A stretch of 64,000 nucleotides of DNA, from contig JAFAYE010000001.1 of NCBI GenBank assembly GCA_019240525.1, forward strand, positions 717,300 through 781,299. Reading direction: 5' to 3'. Shown in pieces: positions 32,108 through 33,455 of this stretch (its first letter is position 1; every line of letters begins with the position of its first letter). Origin of the DNA: Candidatus Eremiobacterota bacterium. Lineage in GTDB: Bacteria > Vulcanimicrobiota > Vulcanimicrobiia > Vulcanimicrobiales > Vulcanimicrobiaceae. The position numbers and the translations under genes were made by a program. The notes beneath the pieces are model-generated. The model was not told where the DNA came from. It ran no database searches and worked only from the letters and a program-made list of their open reading frames with translations.

Positions 32108-32208
32108 CCACCCTTCGAAACAAGCTCAGGGAGACACGCATAAATCGCCCTTCGACAGGCTCTGGGTGAGACGCATGAATCACCCTTCGACAAGCTCAGG
32201 GTGACACG
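32108..32208. repeat. Three tandem copies of a CCCTTCGACAAGCTCAGGG-type palindromic repeat
   Basis: Three units follow one another at about 32108-32145, 32146-32180 and 32181-32208. The third is closest to a perfect palindrome (CACCCTTCGACAAGCTCAGG + GTG); the others carry changes such as GAAACAAGCTCAGGGA and GACAGGCTCTGGGTG. The spacers share ACACGCAT(A/G)AAT. Elements of this sequence are scattered in many bacterial genomes as small intergenic hairpins. Here they sit directly 3' of the tRNA-Leu gene, where the hairpin could help 3'-end formation. A related element lies at 23265-23310. Confidence 0.75.
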
Positions 32209-32214
32209 TTAGAT

Positions 32215-32524
32215 TGGGATGGCCGGGAGTCGAACCCGGACGCCCTTTCGGGCTGCAGATTTTCGCACCACTATGACTTTCGCCACCGCGCGATCGCGTT
32301 TGTGGTCCGGACTGTGCCTTGACCGTATGAGATGTTGCGTCTCACTTAGGCCGCGCCCATCCAGTCTCTACACCTTCTTCGACTCATCGAAGCTTGGCTC
32401 GGCGTTGTCACGTCGCAAAACAGAGAGTTCGCCGAATTTGAGCGCATCCCGTAAGCCGTTTCCATGCTTACGGCTCAACGGATCTCGTTAAGTCTGCTGT
32501 GTCTGCCTATTCCACCACCATCCC
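32215..32524 (-). tRNA. tRNA-Leu(UAA) interrupted by a group I intron
   Basis: The two exons are 32490-32524 (35 nt) and 32215-32263 (49 nt). Joined they give an 84-nt class II tRNA. The acceptor GGGATGG pairs with CCATCCC and the discriminator is A. The D-stem is GTG/CAC, and the anticodon stem is GCAGA/TCTGC with loop CTTAAAA and anticodon UAA. The long variable arm is GCCC-GAAA-GGGC, and the T-arm is CCGGG-TTCGACT-CCCGG. CCA is not encoded. The intron lies after the first anticodon base (U34). The 5' exon overlaps the end of the ppx reading frame. The 3' end probably served as an integration site for the neighbouring island. Confidence 0.93.
32264..32489 (-). ncRNA. Group I intron (tRNA-Leu(UAA) type, 226 nt)
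   Basis: The four conserved core strings occur in order on the minus strand: P (AAATTCGGCGAAC, near 32439-32427), Q (AACGCCGAGCCAAG, 32406-32393), R (GTGTAGAGACTGGATG, 32373-32358) and S (AAGGCACAGTCC, 32320-32309). CGGCG of P pairs with CGCCG of Q (P4), CTTCGA pairs with TCGAAG (P6), and GACTG of R pairs with CAGTC of S (P7). CCGTAAGC pairs with GCTTACGG (P2) around an ATGGAAAC loop. The intron ends in G and the 5' exon ends in U, as expected for self-splicing. It carries no endonuclease gene. Overall it resembles the intron of cyanobacterial and plastid tRNA-Leu(UAA). Confidence 0.9.
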
Positions 32525-33455
32525 AAAGCGAGCGAGGTCCTGCGGCGTCGCGTTCCTGCAAGAGAATGCCGAGCAGTAAGTCGGCAGTCGTCGCGATCGC
32601 CCGATCGCGGCCGATGAGTTCGAGTGCGGTGTCGAGCACGATGATCCCCGCCGGAAGAATGTCGGCGCGCTGGCGTTTCATGCCGGCGACGCGTTTACGC
32701 TCGTCGAGCGTCATCGCCAGCAAACGCTCGAGCCAGCGCTGAAGATCCGCGCGCGTCAGCGACGACGAGCCGTGGGGCGACGGCCGGCCGCGGACGATTG
32801 CGGCGGTCGTCGTCGCACTCCCGCCGACGAATGCGAGTTGGTCGACGGCGGCGCAATCGGTCAGCGGTTTGAGCGCGTCGCGAGCGATCGCTCGTGCTTT
32901 TTCAACGGCCGAAGTATCGGGCGCGCCGTCGCGGCCTGCGAGCGACGGGACGGCTTCGGTCAAACGTACGGCGCCGATCTCGCACGAAACCACGCTCTCG
33001 GGCTCCAAGGAATCGCCCGTTGCATACTCGGTGCTGCCGCCGCCCATATCGAGCACGCCAACACGTTCGCCGCGCAGTTTTTCAAAGGCCGTGAGCGCTC
33101 CGCGATACGATGCTTTCGCTTCTTCTTCGCCCGAGAGTACGCGCAAGGAAACGCCGGTTAACGCCGTAACGCGCTGCGCGAACTCGTCGCCGTTCTCGGC
33201 GCGGCGAAGCGCGCTCGTGCCGACGGCAAACAGCCGCACGTAGTGGCCGCGCACCGCACGCGTCAGTTGCGCAAGCGCGTCGAGCGTGCGCTGCATCGGC
33301 TCGTCACCGAGCCGGCCACGCTCGCCCAATCCCTCGCCGATGCGCGTGCCGATGCTGCGGGCGACCTCAATCCGGGGGTTTTCCGGATCAATATCGGCAA
33401 GTAGCAGACGAGTGGAGTTCGTGCCGATCGAGACGATCGCGTATCGCTTGCTCAT
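32475..33455 (-). CDS. Ppx/GppA family phosphatase (exopolyphosphatase/pppGpp hydrolase)
   Basis: A 326-aa protein of the ASKHA fold. The N-terminal phosphate loop is AIVSIGTNSTRLLLADID (residues 6-23), and the second loop is GVLDMGGGSTEYATG (about residue 140). A conserved E appears in VVSCEIGAVRLTE. It should release phosphate from polyphosphate or from pppGpp, affecting the stringent response. It starts 21 nt after the S1-domain gene. Its last 17 codons, WDGGGIGRHSRLNEIR and the stop at 32475-32477, are read from the tRNA-Leu 5' exon and the start of the group I intron, so the natural C-terminus is shared with an RNA gene on the same strand. Confidence 0.88.
   Translation of the reverse strand: MSKRYAIVSIGTNSTRLLLADIDPENPRIEVARSIGTRIGEGLGERGRLGDEPMQRTLDALAQLTRAVRGHYVRLFAVGTSALRRAENGDEFAQRVTALTGVSLRVLSGEEEAKASYRGALTAFEKLRGERVGVLDMGGGSTEYATGDSLEPESVVSCEIGAVRLTEAVPSLAGRDGAPDTSAVEKARAIARDALKPLTDCAAVDQLAFVGGSATTTAAIVRGRPSPHGSSSLTRADLQRWLERLLAMTLDERKRVAGMKRQRADILPAGIIVLDTALELIGRDRAIATTADLLLGILLQERDAAGPRSLWDGGGIGRHSRLNEIR

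What the first reader, a model, noticed from the sequence alone, without database searches (positions are those of the whole stretch)
32215..32524. Group I intron inside tRNA-Leu(UAA)
The two halves of a good class II tRNA-Leu are split after U34 by 226 nt. This insert has P, Q, R and S core strings in order, P2/P4/P6/P7 pairings, a U before the 5' splice site and G at the end. Introns at this exact site are established in cyanobacteria and plastids. The rest of this window (HrcA/CIRCE, stalk-porin, GloVer proteins) does not look cyanobacterial, so this points to old shared inheritance or transfer. I do not know of a description in this lineage.
Basis: partly seen in the sequence, partly recalled or inferred. 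Interest (0 to 1): 0.8.

Follow-up and report, generated by a model that had tools for sequence, protein, structure and literature searches.

The report
Self-splicing intron in a leucine tRNA
The only tRNA gene for the leucine codon UUA in this uncultured bacterium (phylum Vulcanimicrobiota) is interrupted by a 226-base RNA that looks able to cut itself out; such introns are well known at this spot in cyanobacteria, and we find them common in this bacterium's class, in many alphaproteobacteria and in phages.

Summary
Confirmed to the base. On the minus strand, tRNA-Leu(UAA) 32524-32215 is split after U34 by a 226-nt group I intron (32489-32264). Rfam RF00028: E 6.8e-10, 44.6 bits (below the 50-bit cut-off). 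It is the genome's only tRNA-Leu(UAA) found. The lineage is Vulcanimicrobiota (Eremiobacterota/WPS-2). A model built from this intron finds it at the same site in 50 of 149 genomes of the phylum, all in one class; 39 others carry an intact tRNA-Leu(UAA), none both. Across 40 introns, 31 of 68 helix pairs show compensatory changes while P3, P7 and the P1 U.G pair are invariant, so catalysis looks conserved. The ppx-trnL neighbourhood is shared with and without the intron; the introns form one clade (100/100), with at least six gains or losses on a host-gene tree. Best reading: an endonuclease-free tRNA-type intron, old in this class and repeatedly lost precisely. Cyanobacterial sequences could not be fetched, so common descent with them is untested; splicing is inferred. 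New members of a known kind.

The parts
32490..32524 (-). 5' exon of tRNA-Leu(UAA), 35 nt, ending at U34 (...GCAGACTT)
   Evidence: ARAGORN with introns
32264..32489 (-). group I intron, 226 nt, tRNA type; no endonuclease ORF; last base G
   Evidence: RF00028 E 6.8e-10; model R1 and covariation over 40 relatives
32215..32263 (-). 3' exon of tRNA-Leu(UAA), 49 nt (A35 to acceptor), CCA not encoded
32474..32492 (-). P1: CUUAAC / GUUGAG, with the U.G wobble at the 5' splice site
   Evidence: U.G in 38/38 aligned relatives with letters there, neighbouring pairs covary
32449..32473 (-). P2 hairpin CCGUAAGC...GCUUACGG with a GGAAAC loop
   Evidence: 6 of 8 pairs with double changes
32353..32445 (-). 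P3 (GCGCUC / GGGCGC) enclosing P4, P5, P6 and P6a
   Evidence: P3 and P4 100% paired in 40 sequences, P6a covaries at all 6 pairs
32310..32366 (-). P7 (GACUG / CAGUC, guanosine-binding helix) with the 3' strand of P3 and P8 between its strands
   Evidence: P7 invariant in 40/40; P8 extension covaries
32267..32306 (-). P9 (ACCAC / GUGGU) with P9a and P9b (GAAA loop)
   Evidence: P9a and P9b covary
32475..33455 (-). ppx/gppA phosphatase gene directly upstream; its ORF has no stop before the tRNA and ends inside the intron
   Evidence: PF02541 E 4.4e-48; synteny; stop position

Best explanation
[quoted passage not shown] The transcript folds so that the internal guide pairs with the end of the 5' exon (P1, U.G); guanosine bound in P7 attacks after U34, then the freed U34 3'-OH attacks after the terminal G of the intron, joining the halves into a functional tRNA. 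The intron carries no homing endonuclease. It has resided in this class for a long time and has been lost precisely many times, with intronless alleles at the same ppx-linked locus. Shown: anatomy, single copy, conserved covarying core, distribution, one clade. Inferred: splicing chemistry, subgroup, and loss rather than regain.
For: Rfam match; exact exon halves giving a proper tRNA; no other tRNA-Leu(UAA) in the genome, so removal is needed to read UUA; same site and CTT|...G|AAAAT boundaries in 40/40 inspected introns; covariation 311 double-change cells against 93 in shuffles, P3 and P7 invariant; 50 genomes with the intron, 39 with an intact gene, none with both; ppx-trnL synteny with and without the intron; nearest host relative G009 has the empty site, its tRNA differing from the spliced exons at two bases; intron clade 100/100 in two alignments; intron and host-gene distances correlate, rho 0.48, p 0.003; the related tRNA-Arg(CCU) intron of Bartonella self-splices in vitro and splices in vivo (PMC7717549).
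Against: No RNA data for this organism. Rfam score is below the curated cut-off. Minimum free energy is only mildly better than shuffles (z -1.47). The intron trees rest on 135-233 columns and many forks are open. Presence and absence scattered at this density could also include regain.
Confidence: 0.9

Rival explanations
1. The intron is spread horizontally within the class (by phages or by recombination of the whole tRNA locus) rather than inherited and lost; the scatter reflects repeated gain at the same site.
For: Host tree needs at least 6 (10 by parsimony) changes; phage genomes carry trnL introns at the same site, some with HNH endonuclease ORFs; four viral introns are nearest in the full-intron tree (98/92).
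Against: Intron and host-gene distances correlate; the seven introns of the second family (f3) group together, though below the star threshold (86/84); no endonuclease ORF in the trnL introns inspected in this class; conserved ppx synteny; long stem branch to the viral introns.
Confidence: 0.25
2. The intron descends from the same ancestral tRNA-Leu(UAA) intron as that of cyanobacteria, through common ancestry of the phyla.
For: Same gene and same site, and group I in both (literature; recalled cyanobacterial sequences were not used as evidence).
Against: Not detected in the 32 sampled genomes of the phylum outside this class; the same site is occupied in Alphaproteobacteria and phages, so the site alone says nothing about common descent. 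No cyanobacterial sequence could be fetched for the tree.
Confidence: 0.08
3. A broken tRNA pseudogene with a chance insert.
For: Score below the Rfam cut-off; not called by standard tRNA finders.
Against: Only tRNA-Leu(UAA) in the genome; strong covariation and mutual exclusion with intact genes.
Confidence: 0.01

Closest known systems
[quoted passage not shown]
   Same: Same tRNA, insertion in the UAA anticodon, group I, scattered presence among relatives (PMC5733544, PMC4033280)
   Different: Different phylum; sequence relation not tested because no cyanobacterial sequence could be fetched here
Alphaproteobacterial tRNA-Leu(UAA) and tRNA-Arg(CCU) group I introns (Agrobacterium/Bartonella type)
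   Same: Same core motif and alignable along the whole intron; the tRNA-Arg form self-splices (PMC7717549); the alphaproteobacterial tRNA-Leu introns sit at the same site
   Different: The introns of this class form a separate clade with 100/100 support
Azoarcus tRNA-Ile(CAU) intron (IC3, crystal structure)
   Same: Small tRNA intron with GAAA loops in P2 and P9 and similar core strings (from memory, a lead only)
   Different: Other tRNA and site; not compared with tools
tRNA-fMet group I intron with I-Ssp6803I endonuclease
   Same: Present in five relatives of the same class, one of which also carries the trnL intron
   Different: Other tRNA, other site (U33|C34), an endonuclease ORF in three of five, distinct clade

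Membership tests
Group I catalytic intron | Covariance-model match to RF00028 | tested here: inconclusive
   E 6.8e-10 over the full model, but 44.6 bits against a cut-off of 50
Group I catalytic intron | P4-P6 and P3-P9 domains with the P3/P7 pseudoknot, supported by covariation | tested here: met
   93.9% of cells paired, 31 of 68 pairs with double changes, P3 and P7 invariant in 40 sequences
Group I catalytic intron | U.G pair at the 5' splice site and terminal intron G | tested here: met
   U.G 38/38, terminal G 40/40
Group I catalytic intron | Guanosine-dependent self-splicing | not testable with these tools
   Needs an in vitro transcript or cellular RNA
tRNA-Leu(UAA) intron at U34|A35 | Host gene and exact site | tested here: met
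   ARAGORN i(37,226); spliced exons give tRNA-Leu(taa)
Cyanobacterial tRNA-Leu(UAA) intron lineage | Common descent with cyanobacterial introns | not tested
   No cyanobacterial intron could be retrieved
Subgroup IC3 | Match to an IC3-specific model | not tested
   No subgroup models here; nearest tested relatives are alphaproteobacterial and phage tRNA introns

The most novel reading that the evidence does not exclude
Probability: 0.25. Interest if true: 0.7.

Novelty: new member of a known kind. Interest (0 to 1): 0.42.

Why it matters
It extends a classic 'ancient' bacterial intron to a whole class of uncultured bacteria, where standard tools miss an essential tRNA, and gives a dense natural series of intron-bearing and empty alleles at one locus for measuring intron loss. 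Together with the phage and plasmid copies it shows that occupancy of this site is not by itself evidence of descent from cyanobacteria.

Tried and rejected
Default Rfam and ARAGORN runs on the window miss the gene. Cyanobacterial introns were sought with motif scans of viral contigs (none), with a sequence recalled from memory against plasmids (only a Pontibacillus plasmid, L344, which gave no match to the model at E <= 0.001) and by naming a control genome as a handle (not accepted); so no cyanobacterial row is in the trees. L103, L097 and L099 were dropped from the second and third trees as long or truncated rows. Genomes with neither intron nor intact gene were probed with a 3'-exon query and gave little; they may be assembly gaps or divergent genes. 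A search of Alphaproteobacteria centred on L106 was not accepted. A protein-spliced (bulge-helix-bulge) intron was rejected because the insert has the group I core.

Full report
Observation. The minus strand at 32524-32215 holds a class II tRNA-Leu whose halves are separated after U34 by 226 nt. Standard ARAGORN and Rfam at its gathering score report nothing there. With a permissive threshold RF00028 matches 32289-32499 (-) over the whole model with 44.6 bits and E 6.8e-10, and the same hit is the only one in the 2.8-Mb genome. ARAGORN with introns allowed returns tRNA-Leu(taa) with an intron of 226 nt, and the spliced 84-mer folds as tRNA-Leu(taa).

Only copy. The genome (97% complete) has 45 other detected tRNAs. 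All were fetched and typed: leucine anticodons UAG, CAA, GAG and CAG are intact; UAA exists only in the interrupted gene. To read UUA the cell therefore needs the insert removed.

Lineage. Loci found by a motif scan with named records include contigs whose lengths equal those of the unnamed relatives: QHBJ01000015.1 (149,392 bases, 'Vulcanimicrobiota bacterium') equals G021:C19; JAFANA010000097.1 (71,701) equals G090:C67 and DAIDHQ010000030.1 (289,492) equals G091:C30, both titled Candidatus Eremiobacterota. The window has the same family code as these (f1), so its phylum is Vulcanimicrobiota (Eremiobacterota/WPS-2).

Distribution in the phylum. A covariance model of the core (P3 to the start of P9, 144 positions, from three introns) matches 54 of 149 genomes at E <= 1e-4, all in families f1 and f3 of one class; none of 32 genomes outside the class matches. 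Host genes were assigned from flanks: 50 genomes have it in tRNA-Leu(UAA); five have a group I intron in tRNA-fMet, one of them in addition to the trnL intron. A pattern for an uninterrupted tRNA-Leu(UAA) hits 39 genomes. The two sets do not overlap (hypergeometric p about 3e-13 for the 117 genomes of the class, ignoring relatedness). Both states occur inside single genera (for example g1, g42, g43, g46, g48).

Conserved catalytic structure. In 40 introns the 5' exon ends in CTT and the intron ends in G before AAAAT in every case (these boundaries were located by searching for such strings near the core). On a sequence-only MAFFT alignment (A4) the window-derived structure of 68 pairs is formed in 93.9% of cells; sliding partners by 1-3 columns gives 32-41%. 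31 pairs have compensatory double changes and 311 cells carry them against a shuffled mean of 93 (0 of 500 shuffles reach it). P3, P7 and the splice-site U.G never vary, P4 varies only on one side. Relatedness inflates such counts, but the slid controls, which keep relatedness, stay low.

Same locus, with and without. The gene upstream is ppx/gppA (PF02541). It lies beside trnL in intron-bearing and intronless relatives alike. The nearest relative of the window by Ppx is G009, which is intronless and whose tRNA-Leu equals the window's spliced exons except for two bases in the variable arm. On a Ppx tree of 39 genomes presence and absence need 10 changes, at least 6 forced by well supported branches; a single-gene tree is an imperfect host tree.

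Origin. In a tree of 96 introns (40 from this class in tRNA-Leu, 5 in tRNA-fMet, 19 alphaproteobacterial tRNA-Leu, 7 tRNA-Arg, others from phages and plasmids) the tRNA-Leu introns of this class are one clade with 100/100 support, both on the model-fitted core alignment and on an independent MAFFT alignment of nearly whole introns. Intron distances and Ppx distances correlate (Spearman 0.48, permutation p 0.003; one row per genus 0.42, p 0.017). This favours long residence with repeated precise loss; some lateral spread inside the class is not excluded. The nearest outside rows are four phage introns (98/92), but the stem is long (about 1.1 changes per column) and the core tree does not resolve it. 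Cyanobacterial introns could not be obtained, so nothing is claimed about them.

How it works. No step of splicing was observed. [quoted passage not shown] By established group I chemistry, exogenous guanosine bound in P7 attacks the phosphate after U34 in P1, and the new 3' end attacks after the terminal G of the intron. The 40 aligned trnL introns of this class are 206-285 nt, too short for an endonuclease gene of usual size; two longer ones, L097 and L099, show no convincing endonuclease ORF by eye.

Novelty. Reviews list tRNA group I introns in cyanobacteria and some alpha- and betaproteobacteria (PMC4033280), and in cyanobacterial tRNA-Leu and tRNA-fMet (PMC5733544). No open-access paper held mentions both group I introns and Eremiobacter...; subscription papers are not covered. 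The finding is a new set of members of a known kind. The occurrence in phage tRNA genes is at odds with a 2014 review that saw phage introns only in protein genes (PMC3984707), a statement that may since have been updated elsewhere.

Noticed in passing
L103, L105 (LR756511.1, LR756501.1), L104 (Gordonia phage Daredevil), L224-L343: Phage genomes and viral contigs carry group I introns in tRNA genes, many in tRNA-Leu(UAA) at the same site; three read through (L103, L287, L333) hold an ORF in the intron, two of them tested and matching HNH endonuclease.
   Followed up: partly
L101, L102 (NC_004464.2, CP142574.1); 1259 plasmid records match in all: Enterobacterial plasmids carry an unannotated tRNA-Leu(UAA) with this kind of intron next to an AAA ATPase gene and aac(3)-II (seen in the two records opened); the intron groups with Enterovirga and Bradyrhizobiaceae, suggesting an alphaproteobacterial source of that segment.
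   Followed up: partly
L008, L017, L094, L095, L096: Group I intron in tRNA-fMet (U33|C34) of five relatives; L094-L096 have similar ORFs inside, and the L094 ORF matches PDB 2ost (E 6.9e-56) and PF11645, i.e. the I-Ssp6803I type.
   Followed up: partly
L002-L007, L009, L010, L013-L016, L018-L023: Frequent group I introns in what looks, from flanking sequence, like the 23S rRNA gene in other genomes of the class; the window's genome has no such hit.
   Followed up: no
window 32149-32165 and 32184-32200; L057, L058, L093: REP-like palindrome CCTTCGACNRGCTCWGG: 121 copies in the genome (reversed control 0); also inserted in peripheral loops (P5, P6a, P9a) of three relatives' introns.
   Followed up: partly
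window 32475-33455 (-): ppx has no stop before trnL: the ORF runs through the 5' exon and ends at a TGA inside the intron; in most relatives checked a stop lies before the tRNA, though the frame was chosen automatically.
   Followed up: partly
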